From: Schoenoplectus triqueter
Taxonomy: Eukaryota > Streptophyta > Magnoliopsida > Poales > Cyperaceae
Reading direction: 5' to 3'
Length of the DNA: 64,000 bases
Assembly (NCBI GenBank): GCA_964058805.1
Contig: CAXKVV010000022.1
Span: forward strand, 558,001 to 622,000
Shown here: piece after piece, positions 1-62,007 of the stretch
How the letters are laid out: each line of letters opens with the position of its first letter
How positions within the stretch are numbered: position 1 is the stretch's first letter
Made by a program: the position numbers and the translations under genes
Notes under the pieces: model-generated
What the model was told of the DNA's origin: nothing
The model's database searches: none
The model's input: the letters and a program-made list of their open reading frames with translations, nothing else

Positions 1-264
1 GGCAGAGAAGAGAGAGGCGCCTTGGGTGCATTCAAATGGGTATATATAGCATGTTGAAGATGCTAGAAGGTTCTATGGACGATGAGAAATGAGAAGGTGG
101 TGGAACCAAGTCAACAGTCAAAGATTGGAGCTTTGGATTCTCTGAGTGGGGCCCACAACATAACAGAAGCAATAACAGAAAGCAAAGACCATGTCTATAG
201 GCCAGGGCAAGTTAATTGATGGTGTTTAGAGGGTGTATGGCTATAATCCTTTGGTGCACCACTC

Positions 265-330
265 CAATTGCCTATATAACCCGATTAATAGCCCACACAA
301 CAACACACAATACAACAGACCAGAGAGAGA
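265..330 (+). promoter_or_regulatory. TATA-like core promoter in repeat copy A
   Basis: CCTATATAACC lies at about 271, followed about 30 bases later by a CA-rich initiator-like stretch (CACACAACAACACACAATAC). The same pair of features occurs in copy B (CCCTATATAAACC at about 50744 followed by CAATACACACAC). Conservation of both suggests a real transcription start for the repeat. Transcription itself is inferred. Confidence 0.35.
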
Positions 331-2921
331 TATAGAGTGATAGATTAGAGAGCTATAGGATAGAAAAGGCAATTGGAAGAGAAGAATTGGTTGTGAGAAA
401 GAAAGAAAGGCCAAGAAACCGATTGATCTCAGTTCAACTTGAGAACTCGGTTGTTATATCTTCAATCATTCATTAGAAGGTGAGTTCTAAGCTTAATCTC
501 AATTGGATTTGAAGTTCCAGTGTTGAATTTTCAGTATAATTGATATAACTGTGTTTGAATTGTAGAGTAACAGTATAATCGCAGCTGAATTTTCGATTTT
601 TCTCTTTTAATCTTGCAAATTCACATTCTCCTTTTCAGTTCTTGCTTTGAATCTCCTTTCTTGTTTTGTTTCTTGATTGAATTTCAAATGGAAACTAGTA
701 ATTGAGTTGTAAAATCGATTGATCTCGGTTAAAACCTGAGAACTCGATAACAGTGAAGTCTTTGTATTGATTTTCTTGTTTAAATGTCGGATTAACCTCA
801 GTTCATGTTGGCATTATGTATATCAGGGACTATACTATCATCTAAGGTCGATTGATCTCAGCTCTAGCTTGAGAACTCGACGGAATTGAAATTTTTTTTT
901 TTGTGTCGTCGCACTGTACCGACTAAACTGAGCTTCCAATTGAGATTAGAGGGAGATTGCACGCATAATTAAGTATATTCTGTTTATAATTGTTGTCACG
1001 AAGCTTGTCAAATGAACAATTGGTATTATAAATGAGTTAATAGCAAGAATTTTGAGTGAAGTGTAATCGGTACCAAACGGTATCATCACACACTTGGTTC
1101 AGCAAAGTAGTGAGTTGATCTGGATATTGCTAATTGTGTCCATGCATGTTAGCATATGTAAACGATGAGAATCAAGCAATCAATTGTCAGGAACATCAAT
1201 TAATTTCACTGAATTTGCAAGATTGCTATTCGGTACCGAGCGGTATCAACCTATTCCAAATGGCACTGGTATGTAGTACTATCCACCGCATTGATTGTCA
1301 ATCAGACACCGTAGAAGGTTTTATCGTGATAGAACGATGCTAAAGGAGTCACCCGATCGACAAGAGGTGGTCTCAATCGCCGGCGTCATCGGTAGCGCGA
1401 ATATTAAAGGTTCTACCAATCGGAATACCAATGGAATGCATTAGCACAAATATTGACGCGCAGGCACGAGTATTGAAGCACATGCACGAATCGCGGAACA
1501 GATCGAATGTTTGAAGTGAAGCGTCATTTTAAATAAAAATCTAGAATGAATCTAGGCCTTATATCTCATGTAGCTTAATCTCAAAGCAAATCTGACGGCC
1601 CAAATAAGAACAGAGTTGAATAAAAGATAAGCTCCAATCTTGGTGCAGATCTGGCGGCCCAGATTAAGCCCAGTAATTAAATAATAACAGAATATTAATA
1701 GTATAAAGTAAATAAATCATTTGAAAATGCTCTTGAACTCCAAATTAACTCAAATTTATTTCTAAAATTTTCTTATTTTACATACTATTTTTCTATACAA
1801 TAATATTTCAGTTTTAAAAATATAACCATAGTAAAACAATTTAAAAGCAAAAGACATTACCTATATTGATATGTTTGACCTAATTTTGACTTGTCATTTT
1901 AAATACTATAAAAATTCCAAAAATACAAATAAAAATCATAAATAATAACTAGATATATTTTAGTGATTTTTCAAGTGATTTTCCATGAAATAATAATGAT
2001 GATAGTAATATGCTATACTAAATGATGAGATTAGCTATATTCTTTGATAAATAAAAAAAATAATAATAATAATAGATATTATATTGATATTTTCTATAAA
2101 AAGAATAATAAAAATAAATAGCACAAAATATACCAAAAAATATACTACTATGGTAATAAATAGTAAAATACATTTTCTTTTATAATAAAGAATGATAATA
2201 CAGTTTTATAATATGAATTGTATTTCTTTTGTTATTTCTACACAAATATACAATAAAAATACTTTTGATGAATAAAATGTAATAAAAATAATAGTTGTAA
2301 TAAAAACATAATGAATTTCATCTCTTATGACTATTTTCAACTAATAATAAAAATCTTATACTTTTCTATAGATAATAAATAGAAATAATAAAAATAGACA
2401 TAATGAATAGTATAATAAATAGGATAGAATATTAGTAATGATTTCTTTTTAGCTATTATAGATACTAAAAATAAATAAAAAAAATAAATAATAAAAAAAA
2501 GTAAATAATAATAATAATAAAAATAATAATAATAGTAAAATAGTATAGCTAACCATCTTTTAATTTTGTAAATGATTCTCATATAATGAATAATGTTTCA
2601 ACATAATAGAATATAATAATAAAATTCTATTACTTTGGCTATTATAAACATTTTAAAAAGACAAATAAAAAAATCATAGCCATTTTATTTTCTATTATTT
2701 TTGTAAGTGATTTTCTACAGAATAAATAGAGTTTAAAAAAAATAAATAAAAAAATAAAATTTTACTACTTTAGCTATTATAAAAATCCCAAAAATATAAA
2801 TGAAACTCTAATTAATAGCTACCCCTTTTCCTATTATTTTTGTAAATAATTTTCTACAATAGATAAATAGAGTTTAAGAAATAAAAATAATAATAATAAA
2901 AATAATAATAGTAATAAGAAC

Positions 2922-2922
<1 letters not shown>

Positions 2923-2968
<46 letters not shown>
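2923..2968. repeat. (AAT)n microsatellite
   Basis: About 15 consecutive AAT/TAA units inside an AT-rich block (1.9-3.0 kb) that is otherwise a string of AATAAT and AAAAT runs. The tyrosine-rich ORFs on the other strand are products of this simple sequence, not genes. Confidence 0.9.
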
Positions 2969-2973
<5 letters not shown>

Positions 2974-3104
2974 GCATCTTCATAATAAAAAATAATAATG
3001 AAAGATATTATATAATAGACTTTGTGCATTTTAGAATAAATATGCTCACATAAGGAGTGTAGAGCCACATATGAATATTTGCACACACGATATAACATTT
3101 AGAA

Positions 3105-3661
3105 TGATTAGTCAAGACGAGAACATCTTGACGTGAGAAGATTAAGGCTTTAATAGCAATACAAGAAGATATGTCGAGACAAGAACATCTTGACGCTTAA
3201 TGAAGAATAACAAGATACATTGAGACAAGAACATCTTGACGTGAGATGAATAAGGCTTTGATAGCAACATGAAGGAACATGTCGAGACAAGAACATCTTG
3301 ACACTTGATGAAGAATAACCAGAGCTACGATACTAACATGAAGATATATGTCGACTCTGAAGAAGAAGAACATTACGATGTCCTAGATAGGTGACATCTT
3401 AATGACTCGCTGCCATGAGCAAGTAACTCATGATTGAATACGCTCACACAAGGGGTGTAGGGCAATATAGTAATTTTGCACAAGTAATGCAACACGTAGA
3501 ATGATTAGTTGAGACAAGAACATCTCGACGCTCGCTGAAGAATGACCAAAGCTACGACATCAGCATGGAGAGATATGTCGACTTTGAAGAAGAAGAACAT
3601 TACGATGTCCGAGCGAAGTGACATCTTAATGTCTCGGTGTCATGAACAAGTAATTCATGAC
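3105..3661 (+). repeat. Hairpin block 1: tandem stem-loops with 6-8 bp stems
   Basis: Five near-identical units carry a 7-bp stem with an 8-base loop, for example GTCAAGA (3111-3117) with TCTTGAC (3126-3132), and GTTGAGA (3508-3514) with TCTCGAC (3523-3529). Two other stem-loop types alternate with them: GATGTC/GACATC (3377-3398 and 3604-3625) and CATGAG/CTCATG (3414-3432), which reappears as GTCATGAA/TTCATGAC (3639-3661) with the same CAAGTAA loop. Copy B has the matching hairpin at 52712-52733. Confidence 0.75.
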
Positions 3662-3681
3662 CATTTGAGCTGGCAAGACTG

Positions 3682-4266
3682 AACTCGTCCGTCGATGAGT
3701 TTGTCTCCTGACTCATTTCCCGAGACTGTGAGATTGAATCGGTCTGTTGGTAGATTCATCCACAAAACAGTGAATGTGAACCGTTCTGTAGGTAGGTTCC
3801 TTCACTAACACATGCCTCAATGTTGAACTGGCCCAGCGCTTCAGGTTTGACATTGTGTGCAATTGTGTTTCCTAGGTTTATGAATCGGCTTAGTGCTACG
3901 AATTCATGATCTAGAAGATCGGTGAGAAGAAACACGTGGGCTATATCCACCCTTCTCCTGATTCACCAACCTCAAGATCAACCGGCTCAGCGCTTCGAGT
4001 TGTATTTTGTGTGATTGGTTGTTGACTAGTTAAGATTGAACCGGTCTGTTTGTAGGTTTATCTTCTAGATCAACGGAGGTCGAGTCGGTCTGTATGTAGA
4101 CTCACCTCAAGCCCCTATGAAGAGATTAACCTGGTCTGTTGGTAAGGTTACATCTCGAGGTGGCATGGACTGAACCGATCTGTTTGTAGGTTCGTCCCCC
4201 ATAGGACAAAACCAATCTGTTTGTAGGTTTGTCTTCCATAGATTGAACCGATCTGTTTGTAGGTTC
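3682..4266 (+). repeat. Hairpin block 2: nine stem-loops around a GATCTGTTTGTA-like core
   Basis: Nine units have the form N5-(GATCTGTTTGTA)-N5', where the five flanking bases pair: AACTC/GAGTT (3682-3701), TGAATC/GATTCA (3735-3758), GAACC/GGTTC (3778-3799), AACC/GGTT (4039-4058), GAGTC/GACTC (4082-4103), TAACC/GGTTA (4127-4150), GAACC/GGTTC (4172-4193), AAACC/GGTTT (4208-4230) and GAACC/GGTTC (4245-4266). Hairpins of a second type, with a GGCTCAGCGCTTC-like loop, sit between them (3824-3848, 3880-3907, 3979-4002). Confidence 0.8.
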
Positions 4267-4324
4267 ATCTTCCGTAGACCCTTTTTATAAACCTAGACGA
4301 CCACTTGACCATCTTTTAACTATA

Positions 4325-4420
4325 CTATTTGCTTCTCTCTTTCAAAGATCCAGAGGTGCCTCGAGGTTCGTAGCCCAGGGTAATTAACGGTGGGGGCTTG
4401 CGCCCATCGGAATCTACAAG
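4325..4420 (+). repeat. Conserved terminal module of the hairpin-rich repeat, first copy
   Basis: A strongly conserved block containing CAGAGGTG.CTCGAG, AGCCCAGGGTAATTAACGG and a GGG-CTTGC-CCC type palindrome (GGGGGCTTGCGCCCATC). The same block recurs at 6234-6320 and 54368-54462. In copies A and B it is followed by about 160 bases of GC-rich sequence ending GTCGCACA. It marks the right part of the repeat; its role is unknown. Confidence 0.7.
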
Positions 4421-4616
4421 AACTCACAATCACTAAAAACCCCCTGAATTTGCATCCAAATATCTCTAAACGGCAGAATCGGCCGACACCCAGCAGATGC
4501 ACGCTCGGGAGGGATCTCCGTGTCCTTCTTCCGCAGAACCCACCGCCCGGCGGCGGTGCGGCGGCGCGCGAAAAAGGGTCGCACAATAACATATTAAAAT
4601 AATATGACAGTGATAA

Positions 4617-5197
4617 TAATCATGATTACATGATTATCATGTTCATGGGATGATGACTCATGATCATATAGAGATGATGATTATGTGACAAGGGTGATCA
4701 TGTAGTGATGGTAATCATGTAGAAATGATGACCATTCAGAGATGATGATCATGCAGAGGTGATGATCACATGATGATATCATGATCATCTAGAGATGGTA
4801 ATCATGTAGAGATGATAAACGCATGATGATAATGATGATCATGTAGAGATGATGATTATTCAGAGATGACGATCACATGATGATAATCATGATCATCCTC
4901 AGATGATGACTATGTAAAGATGATGATCATTTAGAGATAATGATCACATGATGATAATCATGATCATCCTAAGATGATGATCATGTAGAGATGATGATCA
5001 TTCAGATATGATGATCACATGATGATGGTCATGATCATGCTGAGATGATTATAATGCAGAGATAATGATCATTCAGATATGATGATCACATGATGATAAC
5101 CATGATCATATAGGGATGATGATCATGCAGAAATGACGATCATATGGTGATGACAATCACATAATGATCTTGAGGATGATGAAGATCACATGATGAC
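4617..5197. repeat. ATGATGATCATG minisatellite
   Basis: About 580 bases built from GATGATCATG, AGAGATGATGATCAT and CACATGATGATAATCATGATCATC, in irregular units of roughly 25-50 bases. Almost every unit contains self-complementary ATGATCAT. It lies directly after the GC-rich end of copy A and before the 180-bp array. No coding frame resembles a protein. Confidence 0.8.
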
Positions 5198-5340
5198 GAA
5201 AAGTTCCACGTAGAGAAGATAAAAGAAGAAGAGAAGCAAGATGGATTATGATCACACGACCATCAAGATGTTAGCCACATCATAAAACCTATATTTTTTG
5301 CCTCGAGTGTGCCAAATTCACGAGTTCATACTTCAGTATA

Positions 5341-6105
5341 CCTGCCTCAATGTTAAAACGGCCAAGTGCTTTGAATTTAATTTTGTGTGTGATAATCTTA
5401 GATTCATGAATTGGCTCAGTACTTCAGATTCATAATCTAGAAGATTAGCAAGATATACATGCGAGTTAAGTTCGTTGCTCTTCTAATTTACCAAATCACA
5501 ATACCAGCTGGCATATTATTTCAAGCTTGGTTTTATGTGATTGGATGTGTAATGTCGCCCTATATCAAAAAGACACACTTACATTTATGAATTTGCCCAT
5601 TACTTCAGATTCATAATCTAGAATATCAGTAAGACGTGCATGAAAGTTAAGTTCGCTAGTCTTCTGATTTACCAACCTCAAGGCTAGCTGGCATAGCGCT
5701 TTAGGCTTAGCTTTGCGTGATTGGATAGGTAATGTCACCCTATATCAAAAAAACACACCTAAGTTTTTGAATTGGCCCAGTGCTTTGGATTCATAATCTA
5801 GAAGATCAGTTAGATGTGCATGCAAATTAAGTTCGCTAGTCTACTGATTTACCAACCTCAATACCAGCTGGCATATTGCTTCAAACTTGGTTTTATGTGA
5901 TTGGATGGGTAATGTCGCCCTGTCTCAAAAGGACACACCTAGGTTTATGAATCGGCTCAGTGTCTTGTATTCATAATCTCGAAAATCGGTGAGATGTGCA
6001 AGTGAGTTAAGTTCGTTAATCCATTGATACACAAATTCTAAGATAGACTAGCACAATTAATCTAATCTTGTACAATTGGTTGGATGTCAGCTACCCTATA
6101 AAAGC
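5341..6105 (+). repeat. 180-bp tandem array, about four units
   Basis: The landmark CATAATCTAG/CATAATCTCG recurs at 5431, 5612, 5792 and 5972, giving periods of 181, 180 and 180 bases. Each unit also carries a GGCTCAGTGCTT-like hairpin loop between ATGAAT and ATTCAT arms, a GTTAAGTTCG.TAGTC block and GTGATTGGATGGGTAATGTCGCCC. Copies A (3870-4030) and B (53395-53560) have this unit only once, so the array is a local amplification. Confidence 0.8.
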
Positions 6106-6233
6106 CCACGCTACAGATTTTGGACTGTTGAACTCATAAGTTCTTAACCCGACCCATCATTTCATTCATCACATCATACCCCATATCCCAATACTTCACG
6201 CCTAATTGACCACTTATATCTACTTAGCTATTG

Positions 6234-6330
6234 TATTTGCTTCTCCTTTTATGATCCAGAGGTGTCTCGAGATTAATAGCCCAGGGTAATTAACGGTGGG
6301 AGTTTGCGCCCATCAGAATATATAAAGTTG
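6234..6330 (+). repeat. Conserved terminal module, second copy
   Basis: Repeats the block seen at 4325-4420 (CAGAGGTGTCTCGAG, AGCCCAGGGTAATTAACGG, GTTTGCGCCCATC). It follows the 180-bp array. Together 5.26-6.33 kb looks like the right half of a further, partial copy of the same repeat family lying head-to-tail after copy A. Confidence 0.65.
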
Positions 6331-26162: not shown

Positions 26163-28275
26163 TTTTTTTTTTTGAGAAAAAGATGAGGTCAAGCCCTCAA
26201 ATTTTATTAATTATGATCACGACCTGTGATCTAAGTTACATATGAAAATAATGAAAATAAAGACCAGAAAATAACATGAAAGAACAAGTAAGAACTGTCA
26301 CTAGATTGTGTATTCCTTTTTATGTACTGGTAAGGTTCTGACAATACTGCTATGAGTTCTTCTTCATCACTGATTTCCGAACCAGGATCTTAATTCCTTG
26401 AGTATCTCTCTTGCCACCTCCGGTATCTGTTGCTCTTCTTCTTGGAAAATTCATCTGCATCTCTCTTTCCATATTGTGAAGATTGTTGTGATTTCCATCT
26501 GTTTCCAGTAAATGTTACCACCTCCTTGGATGATACTGGTTGTTGAGGCTAGGGAAGTATAAGCTGGGCAGTTTTCTTGTATAGGGGGAGCTGTACTGGC
26601 TATGTAGTTACGCAATTGGCTTGAAAAAGTGCATTCATTGAATATGTGTTGAACTGACTCCAGATTAGCTCGACAGAGATAACACATGTTGGTTATAACC
26701 CACCCTCTTTTGACCAGGTTATCTATTGTCAATATCTTATTCCTCATTGTCAGCCAGACAAAAATTTGAACTCTTGGCGGAGCTTTTATTTCCCATATTC
26801 GAGAGTAGCACTCTTGTACATGGGGGGTATCTGTGATGAAGCTATACGCTGACTTAACAGTGAAGCACCCTGTTGTGTTTCTTGTCCATACCACCTCATC
26901 TGTAGCTCGTTGCACTTGTATGGTACCAAGCAGCTGATGCAGGTGATGCAACTCTTGTCTTGCTTGCGCTGTCAAATTTCCTTGTATCAGGAGATGCCAC
27001 TGTCCTTGTTGGAGGCATTGTGAAACTGAGACATCCTTGTATCTTATCTGATCGTAGAGTTGGGGGAATTGAAATTTCAATGGATCTTGGAGCCAAACAT
27101 CGTGCCAGAATTGTAAACTGGCTCCTTGTCCAATCTGAAACCGGACAGAGGCATGAAAGATTGGCTCAAGTAATGCTATACTCTTCCAGAATGGTGATGT
27201 GTTTGCCATTTCCCATGGTCTTATGTGAGGCCCCGGTGTCGGTGTGGCCTCCTTCCACCAATCTTGCTTATCACTTATCCATTGCCACATCCATTTTAGC
27301 ATCAGCGAATTATTCATTTGCTCCGAATCCTTTACTCCTAATCCTCCCAATGCTTTGCTTCGTGTCACAATTTTCCAACTTACTAAACATATTGCTTTGT
27401 TGCTATCTTGCATTGTTTTGTGTCCTTGCCATAGAAAGTGTCGTCTTATTTGATCTAATCTTCTTATTACTCATTTTGGTAGCATAAAAGCTGACATGTA
27501 ATAAACCGACTGCGCTGTCAAAACAGAGTTGAGTAAAGTTAGTCGACCTCCAATTAATAGTTGTTCCGCCTTCCATCCCGACGACCTCTTTTCCTCCTGT
27601 TCTATCAAAGGCAAATATGACAACCTCTTTAATTTTTTGTCTGACAATGGTAGGCCCAAGTAGGTAATGGGAAAAAGTGTCATCTTGCAATGCATGACAT
27701 GGCCAAAGTTTGGGCTTGTCCTGCATGATCTGTTGTAACTAACAATTCTGATTTTTCAAGATTAATCTTTAGCCCGGACACTCTTTGGAAAATTGTCAAA
27801 ATCATTCTAAATATCTTAATTTGTTGTTGGCATGGCTGTAGAAATATTAAGGCATCATCAGCGTAGAGTAGGCATGTTCTACAATCTTGGAATGGTTCCC
27901 TAAGCAATTGCAACTGCGTCATTCGGTTTATCCATCTTGCTAAGAAGTCAATGGCAATGTCAAAAAGATACGGTGATAGGGGATCTCCTTGAAGAACTCC
28001 TCGCTTGAGCTCGATATCTCGTCCAGCCACTGAGTTGAGTAGTATCTTGGATGACCCTTGGAGCACTAGTAACTGAATCCAAGATATTAACTGATGTGGA
28101 AAGCCAGAAGCCTTCAGGCAATTTAGCGAAAAAATCCATTGTATAGAATCGAATGCTTTGTGGATGTCGACTTTGAATACCGCTATTTGCTTGTGGTGCT
28201 TTGTCGCTGCTCCAATGACCTCCTGTGCATAGTTGAATCCCTGCAAAATCCGGAACATTTTTGCAGGGATATACA
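26163..28275 (-). mobile_element. 5'-truncated LINE (L1-type) with reverse transcriptase and zf-RVT
   Basis: On the minus strand the first part reads reverse transcriptase: VDIHKAFDSI (catalytic aspartate), RGVLQGDPLSPYLF and LLYADDALIF (YADD box at 27865-27854), followed in another frame by YLGLPLSDKK...GGRLTLLNSVL, and then a long frame (27413-26451) with GGLGVKDSEQ and the LINE zinc-binding end (ILTIDNLVKRGW, CYLCRANLESVQHIF). The 3' end is an 11-base T-run on the plus strand (26163-26173), i.e. a poly(A) tail. No endonuclease domain remains, since similarity stops near 28275. At least one frameshift and one stop separate the blocks, so it cannot move by itself. Confidence 0.9.
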
Positions 28276-28601
28276 TTATATTTCTTTATATATTTATTTG
28301 TCTTATTTGTCTGTATGTGTATGCTTATTATGTATACCTGATTGTATCTTATTTGGATGAATGAAACCATTGCTACATATGCCTATTTATAGGCAAAACT
28401 TTACCGACTTATACATGTCAATTGATTTATTTTATCTTTTGATCACCAATCAATTTATGCTTTGTGATTTTGATATCATCCGAAGAGCCAACGGGAACTT
28501 TTTAATTCAGTTGGCGAATTATGTTTATTTAACTGACTTTGTATGAAACAAAACTCATGGCCATTCAGGTATTCAGCTTTGGATAATTATATATATATAT
28601 A

Positions 28602-34459: not shown

Positions 34460-37400
34460 CTGCATGTTTCATCTCAGTTTAAAGTTTATACTCAACATAA
34501 GCTGCAACTTCTTATTTAGGAAAACAAATGGAAAAAAAAGGTAATTTGAAAATATTCAAGTCAAACATGTTACCTCAAAGTATTGTATCATGTTGCTTGA
34601 AAATGAGCCCAGAGATCCACTATAGATTAGCTTACCTCCCCTTTTCATTAGTATCAACTGTGTAAAGGTAAAATTATAAATTTAGATTGATTGAAAAATG
34701 ATTTATTACCTCCCCTTTTCATAGCTTCTAGCAAACTTGTAAAACCAAAATAGAAAAAATAAGACATTTTCAAACACTGTACCTCATCAAAAGCTTCAAA
34801 AATCTCAATGCTGGGCTGATGAATTGTACAGACAACAGTTCGACCAGTGTCAACTGTCTTTCTTATCGCTCGCATGACAATGGCTGCAGCACGTGCATCG
34901 AGGCCGGATGTTGGCTCATCCATGAATATAATTGAAGGGCTAGATATTAGTTCAACAGCTATAGTTAGCCTTTTCCTCTGTTCGGCGGAAAGACCATCCT
35001 GTCCAGGCACACCCACCATTGCATTTCTCAGGTTTGTCAGCTCTACTAACCCCATGACTTCTTCTATAATCATCTGTAAGAGAGAGAGAGAGAGAGATGG
35101 TAGTAAAATGATATTCATTGTTGTCAAATATAGTGAAGTTCACTCAACAAAGAACAAATTGTGTCGCTCCTCAAAACTTGCATTTCATATTAGTATGTTT
35201 TTGGCCTAGCTTATGTCCTATGGGGTCAATAAAACACATAAAAAAAAAGGAGAAATCAGTATTAGTGATCATAAGGTGGTTTCCGTTTGCAAATACTCTT
35301 AAAATGAGTATGTCGCAGTAGTCATGTGAGAAATTTTTGTTGTTGTTTCAGGAAAGCTGGAATATTTGGCGTACTTTGGAAGAGAAATAAAAAATATGTA
35401 TTCAAAAAACATATCCCAAGCTAAAAATAACAATTAGGAGTAAGGACTGAAAATTGAATGCACAATAATAGTTCATAAAGGATTTTTATTTAGAATCCAA
35501 AATGGTGATGCATAAAATGTACATAAAAGCAGACTAGATCAGGAAGGTTCTAAGATGCATAATAAGCTGATATGCTATATCACAGCAATATGGTAGCTCT
35601 ATTAAGACAAATAAACATTAAAATATACAAATTAAGAAACAGTTAATTGAACTCAAATTTTATTTGGATGAACAATTATCATATTTTCCTGTTCTGGGTG
35701 TCCAGTAATGCCACAAAAAAAACACAATATCACAAGTCACTTACATATCTTTCATGAGGCTTGATATTTGAAGGAAGCCGGAGCCATGCAGAATACTTCA
35801 AACTCTCATAGACGGTTAAAAATGGGGAATGGATATCTGCTTGCTCACAATAACCTGAAATCCGTGAGAAAGTCTCTTGCTTCTTCTGGAAACCTTCTAT
35901 GCTAATGGTGCCCTCAATATAGCCGCCAGTTTTCCTTCCAGCTAAAACATCCAAGAGTGTAGTTTTACCAGCACCAGTGATTCCCATTAGTGCAGTTAAT
36001 ATACCAGGCTGAAATGCACCACTTACATCTTGCAAGAGTTGAAGTCTTTTCTCAGTCACTCCATATTTTTCCATTTCCTGCAAAACATAAATTTTAAATT
36101 GCAAACATTGGCTGGCACTGGAAAGTGACAACAATTAAAAATCTTTACCTTAGGCATGTCAACAAAATAACTAATATGCTTGAACACAAGGGTTAGGGGT
36201 TGAAATGGGAAAACAACTTGCTGTGGTGGAGCCAACCCATTTTTACACACTGGTTCTGTCTCCTGCATTTCTTTCTTTGGTTTAATGGCTTGTCTCTTGT
36301 AGGGGGCTGCACACAACAAATCATTAAGATTAAGATAGGGAATACAAGTAAACCAAAGATTAAATGATTGAAAGGCACCTATTTTCAGCATTCCACATTA
36401 TCAATCAAATTTTAAATAAACAAAACAAACTCTAAGCATGCCAGAGTAATCAAGTAGATACATAAATATGTACAATGAGAAAATAAGAAAAAAAGATACA
36501 TACGATTGAGAATTTCCAATGCAAAGACACTGAGAATATTGAAAATGAGAGAAAACCCAAACAAGGCAGCAGCAGAAAACCAAAACCAGTGCCATGCCAT
36601 AAACAAGCCTCTAGATTCAAGTACAGCCTTGCCTACTGTATCAGCTTTCATATTTCCATAATGAAATTCCTGCAAAAGCAAAGGATATTTATTTAATTTT
36701 CTTGTAAATAGTTCCTGGTGAAATGTATTGACCAAAAACAACAATTACTGAACCATGATTGGTATAGTTTGCTTAGTGCTTATGCTCCTAGTGATCGTAT
36801 ATCCCTTGGGTGAGTTGGGTCATAATACTGATATATCCTTTTTCAACCAAACATTTTTCATGATGTACCGAGCAAAATATAATTATTGAACCGTCACTAG
36901 TATAATTTGTTCGTGCTTATGCTCCTTGTGATTAAGTATAGCTAATCTGATGATGTATCTGTTGGGTTGTAATACGTCATTATTTTTTCAGCCAGACATC
37001 TTCCATGATTTACCAGGCAAAGTTTCAAAAAAGTTTTACCTCAACAACATCATCCTGCCAATTTAACAAATTACAAATTATAGTGTTCAAAATGAAGTTT
37101 ATCTTACTGTCGACCATCGGCTGTCGAAGAGTTCATTAAGTGCCACAGCATTCAGTGAGTATGTGAATGGAGATGTCCAGTAAGCCCATTGCAACCATGG
37201 TTGCAAGTTGTCTGCGTGAAAAAAAGGCATTAAAAGGATAAAAATGCTTAATAATCCCAAATTGCAAAAATATTTCTCTGTTTTTTACATTAAAAAGTGA
37301 AAATGCTGTGCTCATTGTATAAGAAACTTGAAAAAGAATCTACTGTCAGCTCAATTACTTTGTTTTACAAGTAATTTAGTAATGGGTGAGGATCCATTGA

Positions 37401-40400
37401 CAATATTTCTCAAATAAATTCAAAAATCATCTTAACATTAATAGACATATATCTAACTTGTAGATTTTTATTTCAAATTTCATGCAATCAAGTGTCATTT
37501 CATAATCTATCAATGATTAAATTTACAATGAAATTTAAAATGGTCCAAATTTAATGATCTTTGATGAAATATAAAATGATACTTCAATTGAAAAAATTTG
37601 AAAAACAATCAACATATAACTGCAAAATTTAATCTATAACTTTTTTTTTGTTTTTGTAAGATTTGTTAATATTAGAAAAACCATTGTCAATGACCCACCC
37701 TTCAGTAATTACTAATATTATTCTTCATTACAGTAATAAAATAAATATTATACTCTTGACTTTTCTTTTTATGAAAGTGCAATCAAACTGCATCTTCTGT
37801 AGCTAAATTTGCAATTTAGAGTCCTGTCATATCTTAGAGTTCTCTTTCAAGTATAACAAATACTCGTGGCTCTGAAGATAACTTTTAGTACCTTTTGCAA
37901 TTAAGAAACCTCCAAGTATGACAATTGTAGTAAGAGCAGCTGTGCCGATTACATTGGTCACAACTTGGGTTCTTCCAACTGTGGCAATGAACCGGTATAG
38001 ACTCATTGACATTTGATGCATTGCAAAAAGAATCAAGAAGTGATGAAGAAACCTAATAGAAATAAATGAAAAGAACAAAATATTTATTGCTGGTTATAGG
38101 ATATGTACAGTTTTTATCACTTATCATACATATCGTCCATACTTTTGTCAGTGTGATTGCACCAACTGGAGCAAAAATAATTTACCTGGACGGTGAAGGC
38201 GCAAATCCAATACCATAATAGGTCAAGCCAATCCATATACTTGTCTCAAGAAGTGAAATTGGTATGCTCAAAAGAAATATTGAAGAAAGGACGGCCCAAC
38301 CAGGTAAGTTCAACAACTCCCTCTGCTTGTAGAAGATAGGCAGCCTCTTTATTGTCATGGCTAATTCAGTCATTCCATTAAAATTTATAACCATAATACC
38401 CATAAACAAAGCCCCAAGATATATGTTTCCATCCATCACTGTTTGGTGGTTCATCCTTGTACGTAGGAACAGTGTTGTTATCACAAATGCAATAAAAGAG
38501 ATTTGTATTGTTTTGAAAATATGCAAGGGTGAGTTTCGCTTTAGTAGTAATAGTTCTCTTGAGAGACATGCTCTGAAGATTTCCCATTTTGAGATTGGCC
38601 GAGTTTTCACTGATTTGGTTGAAGCGTCTGTGGTTTCTGTGCTGTTACCTTGCTTTTGGAGACTGTTGTGTATCATTCTACTGTTATTGGTAGATTGGAA
38701 GAATTCAACCAACTTCTTGGTTGAATGATAGTGGTACTCTGTGGGATTCCTGGCCCAATATTGTTCTTGATCCATTTTTGAAGTGACCTATAAGTAGTTA
38801 AGATAGGTTACTCAAGTTCAAGAGAACACTATCCTAAACTCAACATGGACTTCAATTATAGGGAACACAATTGTATCAATTCTGGTTGTAACAATTTTAT
38901 TGCAAGTTGGAGTATATTGAGAGTTTGAGACAAACTGGTAATTGACATTCCCTTGGACAATGTATTGATGCATTTATCTGGTAAAGTACCTCTTGAAGAA
39001 AATCAGCTACATTTTTCCTCTTTGGACATTTAAAACCCATGGATTCAAAAAAATCGATGGCATTTTCGCGAGGACCTTGATATACAATTTGCCCCTCGCA
39101 TAGTAGTATAATATCATCAAACAATTCGAAGGTCTCAGGAGGTGGTTGAAGCAAGGAGATAACCACAGTTCTATCCATTAAATGCGCCATTTGTTGTAAA
39201 AAATTTATTATTTCAAATGTAGTGGAGCTGTCTAGGCCTGTTGAAATGTCGTCCATAAAGAAACACCTTGCTAGACTGACAAGCATTTCACCTACAACTC
39301 GAAGCAAAAAAAAAAGGATAAGAAATAAGGGAATCATATTTTATATGACAATATTATTAATAAATTACCTTTATTTTTAATACAAAAATAAAACTAGTAT
39401 GGTTGTGTGTACCAATTGTAACTCTCTTCCTTTGACCTCCAGAAATTCCTCTTCTCAGTTCATCCCCTACTATAATGTCAGCACAGTCAGTTAATCCAAG
39501 CATCTGCACATGAAAACCTCCTTAGACGTGTTTAAAGGAAAATGTTGATGTATCCAAAAAGTACTATTGCAAAATGAAGTACCTTGATGATATAGTTTGT
39601 CGTTAGGTTGCTTCCATCTCCGCAAGTGGTGGCCTAGAGACCATCAATGTTCAGATTTTAATCAAACAAATAATGTGAAGCAACAGAAATTTGAATGAAT
39701 AAATAATTTTTTGAAAGTTCAACTTTACCTTAACAAAAGTATCAGATTCTAACTCCATTTTGTTGATTGCGGCCTTGTTCCGTCCAATTTTTTCTCCTAA
39801 CATTTCTAGAATTTTGAATATCATGTTATGTTCTTGAAGACGAGAAAAATGATACAAGAAATTGCATAGCACATGGTACTGTACTTTTTCTTTAGGAAAA
39901 TATAACCAAATCAAACATTAACTTGATCATTTTTTTCATCATAGTGAAATCTAAAAAATCGTTAGTTAGCTTAAATTTTGAATTGAACAAGGTGCCTGTA
40001 ATCAGTGACACCACTGTTATACCATTACAAACAGGTACAAGTCCCACAAGACACAAGAGGTGCAGAGAATTGTGGTGAATTTCACTGAAGAGATGAGGGA
40101 CTAGATAGGAAGCATAAGGGTGCAGAATAAAAAGGAATTATAACATCTTAGGATATCAGGTGTCGCCTCTCTGAATAAGGCCTTAGGTCAATTAAAAAAC
40201 AAATTTCGAACAAACAGATAAATTGCCATTTAGTGCAGGTCTAAAATTGGGGTTGAGCATCTATATTTTCCCTTTTCTGATAAACATATTTAGGAGAAGT
40301 AGATTGCCATTTCAACAAGTGTGAAGAATTAAGGCGGGTAAGGATGGTGGTAGGGCTAAAACTGGAGTTTAGCATACCTAACCCTTTCAGATGTCTTGTT

Positions 40401-43752: not shown

Positions 43753-43812
<60 letters not shown>

Positions 43813-50800: not shown

Positions 50801-52711
50801 ACTAGACAGTGCCTATTACCCCTCTGTAATACTCAAGAACTCTAGAGCAAGTGAGAACCCAATTGGCCGATTGATCTCAACAAGTGTTGAGAACTCAGTA
50901 TACACTCAACCCCCTCCACCATTAACAATCAATTCAAGAGCTTAGAGCTACAGAGAAGAAGCAAAAGTGAGTGTATTCAATGAAAGATAAGAGCTTGAGA
51001 TGTAATTATACTCAGTTTCGATCAATTCAGTGAATTTCAATACTGTTAGTTGCATTCTCATTTTTTTTCTTTCAATTCAGTCGAATTTCTCAATTTTCTT
51101 TATTGAACCTTTTCTCTGAGCTATCGCCTTGCTATCTAGATCCTTTATGTTCTATTTTCTTGCTTCTTTCTTGATCAATTAAGTGATTAAAACATCAAAG
51201 ATGATCTGTCAGTAAAAGTTAATCGAAGACTGCATGATCTCCTAGCTCTAATCACAGTAATTGTCTAATCGAAAGTCACTGACCTCTTAGTCTCTGTGTT
51301 TTCAAGTAATTGCTTCAAGAATTCAACTTTGAATCGAGTAATTGATTGAAATTCTGAAGTTAATCGTTGAAACTCGAAAACCAGTAGTGCAATTATGCTT
51401 GCAAACATCATAATTGGTCAAGCTCTATGCTTTGATCAAAGCACATCACATAGGCGATGAGTTCTGCATCAATAAGATCAAATAAATCTTAGCAATTGAT
51501 TGGAAACACTGAGTATAATACCGAATCGGCAATCGGTACCAATCGTAGTCACTGTCTTATTATAATTCAAGCAAGAACATAGACAATTACAATGATTGAA
51601 TCACTGATTGTATCCATTGAGACCCAGAATCGTGTAAGTGAGCCAAGAATTGTAAGAAATCACAATCGAATCAACTTAATTTAATCAAGGAATGCACTAG
51701 GTACCGAAATGATACGAGTCAATTAATTGAACATGGTAGCGCTGACAATCCACCGACTTGATGCACGATCAGAGAGTATAATCAGGATCTCCATACTAAA
51801 ATGATGCCGGCCATGGTGGCTGATCTCCACTGGAGCACCAAGATCGACCCTCTAGCACGCATCTTGATGCGTAAGAGAAGAGAGATAGAGGGGAGCATCT
51901 GCAGCACGAATCTTGAGTAGCTATACTAATCTTGAAGCAGATCCAAAGGATCTGGGTTGTTAAGCATTTAGGAAATTAAAGCAGGATTCAATCTGGGTCT
52001 TTAATCCATCTAACACAAATCTCAGCTAAATCCAGCGACCCAAGTAAAATAAAAAGTAAAATAAAATATTGTGAATCTTGATACATATCCAACAATCCAA
52101 ATTAATCAATGCATTGATCTCGGCCCAAGTTCAAAGCAGGCCCAGCAGAAGAAAAGAAAAGGAAAATTGATTTCGACCCAATCAATTAAGCCCAACTCAG
52201 CTAAATAACAGAAAATTAAAAATAAAGAGTAAATAAATCATTTGAAGATCTTCCCAAACTCTAAATTGACTCAAATTTATTTCTATTTTTTTTTCATAGT
52301 ATTTTTCTATATAAAAACATCTCAATTTTAAGAATTTTACTATACTGAAATAATTTAAAAGCAAAAGAATATTATTTGTTTTTTTTTCTATTTGACCAAG
52401 TTTTGACTTGCTATTTTGGTTATTATAATAACCCTAAAAATCTAAATAAAATTATAAATAATAGTCAACCTATTTTTTTATTATTTTTATAAGTATTTTT
52501 TTACAAAAATAAAGAGAGTTTAAAATAAGAATAAATTCATCTTTTTAATTGAGATAATAATAAAGGGTATTATTCTATTAATAAAAGTCAATAATAATGC
52601 AATAATTCTTTTGTATTTTAGAGGTGATTAAATAAACTCACACAAGAAGTGTAGAGCAATGGAGTATTTTTGCACAAGTAATGCAACACTCAGAACAATC
52701 AGTCAACAACA

Positions 52712-52733
52712 GTTAGGACAAGAATATCCTAAC
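52712..52733 (+). repeat. Hairpin matching block 1 of copy A
   Basis: GTTAGGA (52712-52718) pairs perfectly with TCCTAAC (52727-52733) around an eight-base loop CAAGAATA. The corresponding copy A hairpin is GTCAAGA/TCTTGAC around CGAGAACA. Confidence 0.8.
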
Positions 52734-53175
52734 ACCTACTAAGAGAACAACTGATACTACAACATCAACATAGTGAGTGTGTTGATTTCAAAGAAGAACA
52801 TGATGATGTCTGAATGAGTGATATTATGGTGTTGAGATTGATGATTCAGTGATCATCAATACACCAGTTGCCTCCCAAGGCTGGTGGTGTACAGATATGA
52901 GACTTAGTTGTTTGTAAGCTCATAATCTGATCATATTAGAAGAGTTGAGCTAAACTACCTGAAAACTCATCCTCTAACAGACCTATCTTAATATTAGACT
53001 AGCTAAGTCCTGAGTCTAATTTTGTGTACAATGTAACACTGAATCTGTGAATCTGCCAAGTGCTTGGAATTCGTGATTTAGAAAATCAAGTAAGACAACT
53101 ATAGGGACTCTGTCCATTGTTTACTCATTTTGTATTTTAAACAACTGTTCATGACTTGACATGCTAGTAAGACTG

Positions 53176-54300
53176 AACTGATCTATTTATAAGTTTGTCT
53201 TCTAGTCCATGAGATCGAACTGACCTGTTTGTAAGTTCATCTCCTAAGTCACAAGATTGAACTAATCTATTTATAAGTTCATCTTCTAAATAGTGAAATC
53301 GAATTGATCTGTTTGTAAGTTCATTCACTAACACACCTGGCTCAATGTTAAACTGACTTAGCGCTTTATGTTTGACTTTATGTGTAGAAGTGTTCTTAGG
53401 TTTATGAATCTGCTCAGTGTTTAAAATTCATGATCTAGAAAATCAGTAAGATGTGCATATGGGTCATATCCACTAATCTTCTGATTCACCAACCTCAAAA
53501 TCAACTGGCTTAGCGCTTCAGGTTGTATTTTATGTGATTGGTCATTGACTAGCTAAGATTGAACTGATCTATTTGTAAGTTCATCTTCTAGATCAATTAA
53601 GATTGAGTTGATCTATTTGTAGACTCATCTTTTATCTCTCCGTAGAGGTTGATCTGATCTGTTTATAAGATCATCTCTCGGAGCTGCTAAGATTGAACTA
53701 ATTTATTTGTAAGTTCATCTTTCTCTACCCTAAAATGAACTGATCTGTTTGTAAGTTCATTTCCTACCAACTTACTTTCACTACCCTATATCAAGTGAAC
53801 TGACATGTTAGTAAGTTCATCTGTATCTTTGTTATCTGAACTCAAGTGAACTGATATGTTAGTAAGTTCATCTATATCTCTGTTATCTGAGCTCAAGTGA
53901 ACTGACCTGTTAGTAAGTTCATTTGTACCCCTGTAATCTGTAACATGTGAAACGATCTATGTGTAAGTTCATCTATATCTCTTTTATCTGTATCCCTGAA
54001 CTGATCTGTATGTAAGTTCATCTTTTACCGCATCTACATCTAAATTGAATTGAACTGCTCTATTTATAAGTTCATTTCTTCTATTTTTGAATCTGAACTA
54101 ATATGTTGTAAGTTCATTTTCATCTATTTCTAAACCCCGAACTGATCTGTTAGTAAGTTCGTCTGTCAACACTCTATGTAAGTTGAATCGATCTATTTGT
54201 AGATTCAATTTACACTGTACCCTAAAGATATAACTGATCCGTTGGTAAGTTCATCTTATGCCATTCCTGCCTCATTGAACTGATCTGATTGTAAGTCCAG
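53176..54300 (+). repeat. Hairpin block 2 of copy B: about 20 stem-loops
   Basis: Units keep the GATCTGTTTGTA-like core while stems differ: GAACT/AGTTC (most), TGATCT/AGATCA (53650-53673), AATGAACT/AGTTCATT (53734-53761), CGAACT/AGTTCG (54138-54161), TTGAATC/GATTCAA (54183-54208) and GAGTT/GACTC with a G-U pair (about 53588-53610). Spacing between units is irregular, roughly 35-60 bases. Confidence 0.8.
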
Positions 54301-54367
54301 GGTGTTTCGTAGTGATTATGATCACTTGAACACTTGACCACTCAACCACTTGACTATCATTTAGCTA

Positions 54368-54462
54368 TAGTATTTGATTTCACTTTTGAGATCTAGAGGT
54401 GTCTCGAGATTAATAGCCTAGGGTAATTAACGGTGGGGGGTTTGCGCCTATCGAAATCTACA
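54368..54462 (+). repeat. Conserved terminal module, copy B
   Basis: Third instance of the block at 4325-4420: TCTAGAGGTGTCTCGAGATT, then GGGTAATTAACGGTGGGG and GTTTGCGCC. It is followed by the GC-rich end of the repeat. Confidence 0.7.
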
Positions 54463-54656
54463 ATGACTCACAATCACTAAAAAAACCCCTAAATATGCAT
54501 CACAATAGGTCTAAGCGGTGAATTCAATCAGCGTTAAATAAATACACACTTAGAAGGGATCTCTGTGTCCTTCTTCCGCATCCCATCGCCCCATAATGGT
54601 GGAGAGCGCGCGAAAAATGGTCGCACACAATGATAATTAATCTTACAGTTACATCC

Positions 54657-54699
<43 letters not shown>

Positions 54700-55099
54700 A
54701 TTAGGCTATGGTGTTTTGCAAAGCACAAAAGTATTGTGTGTTTTGCGCTCTATTTTTAATTTTAAGTTAGAAATGATTGATCCAAACCGTTCAATCTAAT
54801 CTCCATATCAAAATCTATTAGTAAATCAAATTTTATATTTTTTAAAATTTATTTGCTATTTTTTTAATAGGGTGGAAACCATCATTTTTTTATGAATCAG
54901 AATTCTCAGATCAAGTCATTTTCTCCTCATCAGAAAAAATAGTAAAAATAATCTAAAAAATATAAAATTTAGTTTACTAATAAATTGTTATATGAAGATT
55001 AGATTGAACGGTTCGGATCAATTATTTCTGACTTGAAATTAAAAATAGAGCGCAAAATACATAATGCCTCTGTACTTTGCAAAGCACCATAGTCGGACT
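54700..55099. mobile_element. Foldback element related to family F2
   Basis: TTAGGCTATGGTGTTTTGCA on the left mirrors TGCAAAGCACCATAGTCGGA on the right, with long inverted AT-rich arms. Wording is close to family F2 (CTATGGTGCTTCG). It lies between a (TA)n(GA)n run (54657-54698) and a (TA)n run. Confidence 0.7.
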
Positions 55100-55111
55100 A
55101 TATATATATAT

Positions 55112-55513
55112 AGAGTAATGCTATGGTGCTTCGGGAAGTAAAAAATCTTTTGTGCTTCGCGTCCGTATCTCGAATTTAAAAGTTCAAACGGCCGATCCAA
55201 ACCGTTGAACATCATCTTCATATTGAAATATCCTTGGAGTTCAAATTTTATATTTTTTTGAATTTTTTTGATATTTTTTAGATGGGTACAAAGTTTGTTA
55301 ATCTAAAGATTTATGCACCATCCAAAACAAGCGACTTTGTACCCATCTAAAAAATATCAAAAAAATTCAAAAAAAATATAAAATTTGATCTCCAAGGATA
55401 TTTCAATATGAAGATGATGCTCAACGGTTTGGATCGGCCGTTTGAACTTTTAAATTCGAGATACGGACGCGAAGCACAAATTTTTTTTTACTTCGCGAAG
55501 CACCATAACATTA

Positions 55514-55517
<4 letters not shown>
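55112..55517. mobile_element. Foldback element, family F2 copy 2
   Basis: Same arms as 43809-44213 with few differences. The central spacer (about 55290-55335) is the reverse complement of the spacer in copy 1, so the two copies were inserted in opposite orientations. It ends in a (TC)n(TA)n run (55515-55567). Confidence 0.88.
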
Positions 55518-55569
<52 letters not shown>

Positions 55570-61524: not shown

Positions 61525-62007
61525 CAGATTTTGTTATATATAATAATTATAAAAATCATATTATTAATAATAAGATTTATAAAAGTAAAATTTTAAATCT
61601 ATGAATAGCAGCGCGCCACCGCCACTGTCAGTGGCGCGGAGCAAACGCGTCACTGTCAGTGGCGTTTTAGTGTAAACGCGCCACTGTCAGTGGCGTCTTT
61701 ACTGAAACGCGCCACTGCCAATGGCGTCTTTGTGTAAACGCGCCACTGCCAGTGACGTGTTTACCTAAAATGGATTTTTGATCACTATAAAATACAGGCA
61801 TAATTATCTATATGCGCGGTTTGTATTTGTAGAAGACAAACGCGCCACTGGCAGTGACGCGTTTCAGTAAAGACGCCATTGACATTAGCGCGTTTGCTCC
61901 GCGCCACTGCCAGTGACGCGCTTCCATTCGTTGATTTAAAATTTTGTTTTTATTATTCTTATTATTAATAATATGATTTTTATAATTATTATATTTAAAA
62001 AAATCTG
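61525..62007. mobile_element. Mutator-like MITE with GC-rich palindromic array
   Basis: Terminal inverted repeats of about 90 bases (CAGATTTTGTTATATATAAT against ATATTTAAAAAAATCTG) and identical 9-mers GAGAATGGA on both sides (61516-61524 and 62008-62016). Long inverted ends plus a 9-bp duplication are the marks of Mutator-like elements. Removing it restores the LINE reading YREWKPLHFGS. The centre carries 31-bp GC-rich units. Confidence 0.88.
61612..61922. repeat. 31-bp palindromic units, 5 in the left arm and 3 in the right
   Basis: ACGCGCCACTGTCAGTGGCG followed by a short T-rich linker repeats with exact 31-base steps (units start at 61645, 61676, 61707 and 61738). Each has its own palindrome CACTGTCAGTG or CACTGCCAGTG. 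The right arm holds about three units in inverted orientation, separated by a 65-base AT-rich centre. Confidence 0.88.

What the first reader, a model, noticed from the sequence alone, without database searches (positions are those of the whole stretch)
3682..4266. Chain of stem-loops with constant loop and changing, co-varying stems (copy A)
Nine units share a GATCTGTTTGTA-like core, but the five or six bases on each side differ from unit to unit and still pair: AACTC/GAGTT, TGAATC/GATTCA, GAGTC/GACTC, TAACC/GGTTA, AAACC/GGTTT, GAACC/GGTTC. Random decay of a tandem repeat would break pairing; here both arms change together. This is the signature used to recognise conserved RNA structure. A DNA-level cause, such as cruciform or arm-to-arm conversion, is also possible. 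I know of no described element with this layout.
Basis: seen in the sequence. Interest (0 to 1): 0.78.

Follow-up and report, generated by a model that had tools for sequence, protein, structure and literature searches.

The report
Hairpin array in plant retrotransposon LTR
A run of small hairpins whose loops stay the same while both sides of each stem change together lies in the long terminal repeat of a giant plant retrotransposon; it looks like a structure the element keeps on purpose, but what it does is not shown.

Summary
Window 3682-4271 carries eight good hairpin units plus one aberrant one. They lie near the 3' end of the 7,249-bp 3' LTR of a young 58.5-kb Ty3/gypsy element of the Tat clade (LTRs 99.6% identical, target duplication ATAAC). 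The family is abundant: 40 places scored of 799 candidates are 98-100% identical. Each unit is longer than first seen: a 12-nt loop, a 5-bp inner stem, a one-base 5' bulge and an outer stem of about 5 bp. Both arms change together far beyond shuffled and slid controls, between units and between orthologous units of two LTR subfamilies about 25% diverged. With a phylogeny-aware null, 2 of 528 column pairs are significant and both are stem pairs. A second hairpin class with another constant loop and a 3' bulge shows the same, more weakly. Arm-to-arm repair in inserted copies appears rare, and the kept bulges speak against simple arm copying. Whether the constraint acts on RNA or DNA is unresolved: the G-U versus A-C test was weak and inconsistent. 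Best reading: a selected RNA hairpin array near the 3' end of the genomic RNA; a new variant of a known kind (tandem or palindromic motifs in plant LTRs).

The parts
1..4585 (+). 3' part of the 3' LTR (copy A); the LTR is 7,249 bp and begins 2,664 bp before the window (G000:C22:555337-562585)
   Evidence: 99.61% identical to the 5' LTR at C22:504046-511276, TG...CA ends
4586..4590 (+). target site duplication ATAAC
   Evidence: same 5 bp precede the 5' LTR
3730..3762 (+). type-1 hairpin unit 1 (GAATC/GATTC inner stem)
3772..3804 (+). type-1 hairpin unit 2 (GAACC/GGTTC)
4032..4064 (+). type-1 hairpin unit 3 (GAACC/GGTTT, one G-U)
4076..4108 (+). type-1 hairpin unit 4 (GAGTC/GACTC)
4122..4154 (+). 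type-1 hairpin unit 5 (AACCT/AGGTT)
4166..4198 (+). type-1 hairpin unit 6 (GAACC/GGTTC)
4203..4235 (+). type-1 hairpin unit 7 (AAACC/GGTTT)
4239..4271 (+). type-1 hairpin unit 8 (GAACC/GGTTC)
3680..3703 (+). aberrant ninth hairpin (AACTC/GAGTT, other loop)
   Evidence: sequence; overlapping model match only 16.3 bits, E 0.21
3822..3851 (+). type-2 hairpin (loop GCCCAGCGCTT, 3' bulge)
3879..3908 (+). type-2 hairpin
3976..4005 (+). type-2 hairpin
4286..4291 (+). TATAAA just after the array; not a safe promoter call
   Evidence: present at this place in the 2 A copies printed and in none of the 14 other copies whose anchor was found; 3 of 19 copies had no anchor
4345..4585 (+). block conserved between the LTR types, inferred R/U5 (transcript start not known)
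   Evidence: inference
52204..54628 (+). copy B: LTR of a second subfamily (left end not defined); no PBS-like sequence follows its 3' end
53169..54303 (+). type-1 hairpin array of copy B, 20 units
53403..53528 (+). two type-2 hairpins of copy B (53403-53432, 53499-53528); a third at 53046-53075
5331..6325 (+). fragment of a third LTR subfamily: type-2 hairpins in 180-bp repeats, no type-1 units
   Evidence: no type-1 match in 10 of 10 relatives

Best explanation
The array belongs to the LTR of a Tat-clade Ty3/gypsy retrotransposon and lies about 75-615 bases upstream of the conserved 3' block of the LTR, that is, in inferred U3. Shown: units with nearly constant loop positions, a recurrent one-base bulge and stems whose two sides change together, kept through the divergence of LTR subfamilies. 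Inferred: the constraint acts on the folded RNA. U3 is copied into the 3' end of the element's genomic RNA, where the hairpins would hold up many copies of one loop to a protein (multivalent docking), for 3'-end formation, export or packaging of the very long RNA. I cannot tell which of these; 3'-end formation is suggested only by UUUGUA in a third of the loops.
For: Element and LTR ends. aRH between RH and the INT zinc domain in pol of a related element. Covarying arms; 106 cells changed on both sides against 29.7 (sd 4.3) shuffled and 14-25 when slid. Orthologous units of two subfamilies: 7.55 of 54 pairs doubly changed and still Watson-Crick, against 0-1.01 when slid. Phylogeny-aware null: 2 of 528 pairs significant, both stem pairs; 3 of 10 stem pairs in the two-set form. 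Loop positions 3, 5, 7, 11 and 12 differ in only 0-4% between window copy A and 24 B copies, against 25% in the rest of U3. A second class with another loop and bulge behaves alike. The bulge is present in 102 distinct units with perfect inner and outer stems (12 stem combinations), against 9 units (2 combinations) without it.
Against: No strand asymmetry on internal branches (G-U and A-C changes of type 1 both at 0.45 of expectation); type 2 leans the other way. Both strands fold better than shuffles (z -3.6 and -4.5, 20 shuffles each). The array-level all-pairs test found 0 of 73,530 pairs significant. Type 2: 0 of 435 pairs significant in the all-pairs test. The loop as a whole differs 20% and the outer stems 35% between A and B, against 25% for the rest of U3, so only single loop positions stand out. 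No transcript data; U3/R border inferred. Loop position 9 is hypervariable (0.69) and UGUA is present in only 48% of units, which weakens the 3'-end reading.
Confidence: 0.5

Rival explanations
1. Mutational origin: template switching or abnormal strand transfer, during reverse transcription or DNA replication, recopies one arm from the other, so pairing is renewed without selection on structure.
For: Such switching is described for RNA hairpins (PMC8794818, abstract, outline and start of the introduction seen). Tandem arrays in Tat elements were hypothesized to arise by abnormal strand transfer (PMC7004042, passages). Unit number differs between copies (8 in A, 20 in B).
Against: On terminal branches (inferred mostly post-insertion) of 33 copies only 8.0 Watson-Crick to Watson-Crick double changes stand beside 224.5 single changes away from a Watson-Crick pair. 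The bulge is found in 12 stem combinations, which fold-back copying should erase. It does not explain the near-invariant loop positions.
Confidence: 0.2
2. DNA-level regulatory motif: tandem enhancer boxes upstream of the promoter, as in Tnt1 or the palindromic repeated motifs of Sireviruses.
For: Position close upstream of the inferred transcript start. Palindromic repeats upstream of the TATA box are a Sirevirus feature (PMC2829016, one section and passages read). Tnt1 BII boxes bind DNA-binding factors (PMC3316501, two passages). No strand asymmetry on internal branches.
Against: A bound DNA site explains a constant core but not freely changing yet complementary flanks. Sirevirus arms share a constant core; here the arms vary and the loop is constant. 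A 12-nt loop is unfavourable for cruciforms (recalled).
Confidence: 0.2
3. Shared descent only: a few old units with different palindromic arms were multiplied by tandem duplication and have no present function.
For: Many near-identical units; in the phylogeny-aware test 8 of 10 stem pairs are not individually significant; the same compensated change recurs in several units, as concerted evolution would give.
Against: Orthologous units of two subfamilies differ by compensated changes, and type-1 stems change less than context-matched other columns of the alignment (0.45-0.67 of expectation; the baseline may be inflated by misalignment).
Confidence: 0.1

Closest known systems
Sirevirus repeated motifs (RM) in the LTR (PMC2829016)
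   Same: Many short palindromic units in the LTR upstream of the TATA box of a plant LTR retrotransposon
   Different: Ty1/copia; a constant CGG-CCG arm core in 12 of 13 motifs and a short spacer; here Ty3/gypsy, arms vary and covary, 12-nt loop, recurrent bulge
Hypervariable tandem repeats of Tat/Ogre elements (PMC7004042, PMC6317226)
   Same: Tat clade, very long LTRs, tandem repeats in non-coding parts
   Different: The described arrays lie downstream of gag-pol in the 3' UTR and are treated as satellite sources; no constant-loop hairpins mentioned in the passages read
Tnt1 BII boxes (PMC3316501)
   Same: Motif in the LTR promoter region (that the boxes are tandem repeats in U3 is recalled)
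   Different: Known to bind DNA-binding factors; no covarying arms in the two passages read
Plant far-upstream poly(A) element UUUGUA (PMC10082929)
   Same: UUUGUA occurs in the loop of 35% of 436 distinct units; position would fit upstream of a 3' LTR poly(A) site
   Different: UGUA itself is not the conserved part of the loop (position 9 variable)

Membership tests
Ty3/gypsy Tat clade | second RNase H (aRH); between RH and INT in Ogre/Retand | tested here: met
   RVT_1, RT_RNaseH, RVT_3, Integrase_H2C2 in this order in L065, pol of the related C2057 element; pol of the C22 element itself was not fetched; criterion from PMC6317226 (passages)
LTR retrotransposon | two near-identical LTRs with TG...CA ends and a target site duplication | tested here: met
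   7,249 and 7,231 bp, 99.61%, ATAAC both sides
Ogre or Retand subclade | PBS type, extra ORF, TSD length | tested here: inconclusive
   5-bp TSD; PBS-like TGGCACGCCCGGTGGGACC not assigned to a tRNA; extra ORF not sought
Sirevirus repeated motif | CGG-CCG dyad core in a Ty1/copia element | tested here: not met
   related element is Ty3/gypsy; units lack that core
Known RNA family (Rfam 15) | match above gathering score | tested here: not met
   0 matches in the 64,000-base window
Conserved structural RNA | covariation above a phylogenetic null | tested here: met
   type 1: 2 of 528 pairs at E <= 0.05, both structural, one exactly at 0.05 (own script, 60 null sets); but array-level test 0 of 73,530 and type 2 0 of 435
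Conserved structural RNA | G-U tolerated more than A-C on the sense strand | tested here: inconclusive
   for; against; ratio 1.24, 95% interval 1.02-1.61, none on internal branches
Plant far-upstream poly(A) element | UUUGUA/UGUA conserved | tested here: not met
   UGUA in 48% and UUUGUA in 35% of 436 distinct units; position 9 variable
miRNA or siRNA precursor hairpin | long stem processed to small RNA | not testable with these tools
   stems are only about 10 bp, so unlikely; no RNA reads

The most novel reading that the evidence does not exclude
Giant Tat retrotransposons carry in U3 a multivalent RNA device: dozens of hairpins of at least two classes, each with its own constant loop and bulge while stems are free to turn over by compensated changes, read by a host or element protein at the 3' end of the genomic RNA. 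Stem turnover would let the array avoid unit-to-unit recombination or mispairing while keeping the loops.
Probability: 0.35. Interest if true: 0.72.

Novelty: new variant of a known kind. Interest (0 to 1): 0.52.

Why it matters
Cis-acting RNA structures of plant Ty3/gypsy elements are little known (recalled). An array of many natural covarying copies of one hairpin in a single genome is a ready data set for asking which letters of an RNA motif matter, and for separating selection from template switching as the maker of compensated changes.

Tried and rejected
Chance pairing: rejected. Background: core-like 12-mers elsewhere in the window mostly lack pairing arms. Known Rfam family: none in the window. 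A clear RNA signature from wobble asymmetry: seemed present with 24 copies, gone with 33, marginal after context correction; not claimed. UUUGUA poly(A) element as the conserved core: not supported. Extra pairs inside the loop: no joint signal for positions 3-10 (Fisher p 0.51); 2-11 only tabulated. A third hairpin class with loop CAAGTAA: weak (16 perfect 5-bp stems of 62 against mean 4.4, maximum 10; 3 distinct against mean 1.3, maximum 4). A fourth with AAGAACA: not supported in the register tested (0 of 106). Relatives in viral contigs: a gag query gave 3 pattern matches, none confirmed, and the PBS pattern 0; records near this genome may be left out there. The 15 gag homologues found (7,997 candidates scored) are unnamed JGI proteins. 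Distinct perfect outer stems (6) did not exceed the shuffles (mean 5.0, maximum 10). For type 2 the number of pairs with a change on both sides (8) was reached by 115 of 500 shuffles.

Selections: alignment A1 holds 85 of the 149 references that one search listed from 8 sources (none of the 3 from L003). They were picked by position from a list without letters; the window units had been seen, and two that do not fit (3683, 54110) were left out. All 532 distinct units were run. Alignment A2 holds 60 of 68; 8 were dropped after viewing as background or deleted, which favours the structure; one search is the undropped count. Searches left out loci L043, L056, L058, L059, L062 and L064, and the A set left out L029; one search used 8 A copies and 24 B copies.

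Full report
What is there. The stretch 3682-4271 holds eight units with the core GATCTGTTTGTA (loops at 3741, 3783, 4043, 4087, 4133, 4177, 4214, 4250) and one aberrant hairpin at 3680-3703. Three hairpins of another kind (3822-3851, 3879-3908, 3976-4005) lie between units 2 and 3. A second array of 20 units is at 53169-54303. In the window a covariance model of the unit found 31 matches at E <= 1. The 28 with E < 0.01 are all on the + strand in these two arrays (8 and 20), and 27 of them were in its training set.

What carries it. The window lies at G000:C22:558001-622000 in an unnamed 82-Mb assembly. A search with window 4030-4590 scored 40 of 799 candidates; 40 places, the window's own included, are 98-100% identical, and 7 further partial matches were listed. 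The C22 copies at 504046-511276 and 555337-562585 are the two LTRs of one element: 99.61% identical over 7.25 kb, TG...CA, flanked by ATAAC on both outer sides. The 5' LTR, not the 3' LTR, is followed by GGATCTGGCACGCCCGGTGGGACC and then a gag-like start. So the finding sits in a 3' LTR of a 58.5-kb element; nested insertions in its 44-kb interior were not checked. A related element on C2057 (LTR at least 6.07 kb, 99.79%) has an open 604-aa first frame without a Pfam match and a pol with RT, RNase H, a second RNase H (RVT_3) and the integrase zinc domain in that order. By the criteria of Neumann et al. (PMC6317226, passages read) this is the Tat clade, Ogre/Retand type. Subclade was not settled.

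Anatomy of the unit. Folding and unit statistics show a 12-nt loop, five inner pairs, a single 5' base (T in 433 of 582) left out, and an outer stem of about five pairs. Among 582 distinct 40-mers the inner pairs are Watson-Crick in 0.84, 0.81, 0.86, 0.84 and 0.72, against 0.55, 0.53, 0.57, 0.70 and 0.54 expected from column make-up. The third outer pair is 0.63 against 0.35. Outer stems are perfect over four pairs in 147 of 582, against 65.5 (maximum 87) shuffled, though the number of distinct outer stems (6) is within the shuffled range.

Is it more than chance or descent? On 85 units all ten pairs vary on both sides: 106 doubly changed cells against 29.7 (sd 4.3) shuffled and 14-25 slid. 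With a null that keeps the tree (parsimony changes redealt to other columns, R-scape style, own script), 532 distinct units give 2 of 528 column pairs at E <= 0.05 (inner pair 3, and inner pair 1 exactly at 0.05), both structural. In the two-set form 3 of 10 stem pairs pass (4 of 10 in the 375 units with at most 2 loop mismatches). On the 85-unit set it is 1 of 528. An array-level alignment of 32 copies gave 0 of 73,530 pairs; I read this as clade-wide differences swamping it. Comparing orthologous units of subfamily A (8 copies) and B (24 copies), 7.55 of 54 pairs per comparison changed on both sides and stayed Watson-Crick, against 0 to 1.01 in six slid controls. Several of these are the same C-G to T-A change at the first inner pair in different units, so independent events are fewer.

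What is constant. Between window copy A and 24 B copies the loop positions 3, 5, 7, 11 and 12 differ in 0-4% and position 10 in 10%, against 25% for the rest of the U3 stretch; positions 2 and 9 differ in 62% and 69%. As blocks, loops differ 20%, inner stems 24%, outer stems 35% and the R/U5 block 22%. So constraint shows in single loop positions and in pairing, not in overall sequence. It does not centre on UGUA: 48% of 436 distinct units carry UGUA and 35% UUUGUA.

A second class. Units with the loop GCTCAGTGCTT have two inner pairs, one 3' base left out and up to seven outer pairs. In 176 distinct units (background included) 85 have a perfect four-pair outer stem, against 32.5 (maximum 44) shuffled. 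On 60 chosen units 83 doubly changed cells stand against 31.0 (sd 4.4) shuffled and 4-18 slid, while the number of pairs with such a change (8) is not unusual. The phylogeny-aware all-pairs test gave 0 of 435, with two stem pairs ranked first. A third LTR subfamily (window 5331-6325 and ten relatives) has this class in 180-bp repeats; no type-1 unit was found in it.

RNA or DNA? If the sense RNA is selected, one-sided changes to G-U should survive better than those to A-C. With 24 copies internal branches seemed to show this (22 against 8.5). With 33 copies it vanished (23.1 against 19.5) and kept versus broken changes did not differ between internal and terminal branches (p 0.55). With mutation context corrected the overall ratio is 1.24 (95% interval 1.02-1.61), carried by terminal branches of type 1; internal branches of type 1 show 0.45 for both, and type 2 leans the other way. 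I count this as inconclusive. Both strands of 3670-4300 fold better than all 20 shuffles each (z -3.6 and -4.5); a stretch of copy B, + strand, gives z -2.8.

Repair of arms. Template switching can create compensated changes (PMC8794818, abstract, outline and start of the introduction seen). In inserted copies it appears infrequent: on terminal branches, which also hold some time before insertion, 8.0 doubly changed Watson-Crick pairs stand beside 224.5 single changes away from Watson-Crick. The bulge is present in 102 distinct units with perfect inner and outer stems, in 12 stem combinations, against 9 units without it and none with a one-base 3' or two-base 5' bulge. Copying one arm from the other would remove the bulge. 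A role of reverse transcription in making units cannot be excluded.

How it most likely works. In LTR elements U3 is transcribed only as the 3' end of the genomic RNA (general knowledge). If the conserved block from about 4345 is R/U5 (inferred; a TATAAA at 4286 was seen in the 2 A copies printed and at that place in none of the 14 others assessed), the array lies about 75-615 bases before it, at the 3' end of the RNA. Many copies of one loop on compact stems suggest docking of several molecules of one RNA-binding protein. Candidate uses are 3'-end formation in the 3' LTR only, export of a very long unspliced RNA, or packaging. None is shown.

Comparison. Sirevirus elements carry up to 32 palindromic motifs each, 3 to 14 of them in the 3' LTR, mostly in its upper half before the TATA box, with a CGG-CCG arm core in 12 of 13 motifs (PMC2829016, passages and one section read): same place, opposite design. 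Tat/Ogre elements are known for hypervariable tandem repeats after gag-pol and for very long LTRs (PMC7004042, PMC6317226, passages). My literature searches (open-licence PMC only, listings and the passages named) showed no described constant-loop, covarying hairpin array in an LTR; subscription papers were not searchable.

Noticed in passing
61620-61763: Another tandem array of a short perfect hairpin (31-bp period, CGCCACTG.CAGTGGCG), not similar to the LTR units.
   Followed up: no
43759-44570 and 54657-55557: Inverted-repeat (foldback) elements related to each other, about 82% identical; the second lies directly beside copy B.
   Followed up: no
4611-5197: Tandem array rich in ATGATCATG-type palindromes (periods 17, 54 and 71) directly beside the insertion site of the element.
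   Followed up: no
G000:C22:504046-562585: Element of 58.5 kb with 7.2-kb LTRs and a 44-kb interior, unusually large; nested insertions likely but not checked.
   Followed up: partly
3115-3670: Further hairpins upstream in the LTR: CAAGTAA loops with stems TTGCA, ATGAG and ATGAA, and GATGTC/GACATC; only weak statistics.
   Followed up: partly
26451-28276: Open frames with RVT_1 and zf-RVT matches on the - strand, probably a non-LTR retrotransposon.
   Followed up: no
34654-38775: Open frames like an ABC transporter on the - strand: ABC2_membrane, and an ABC_tran match just under its cut-off.
   Followed up: no
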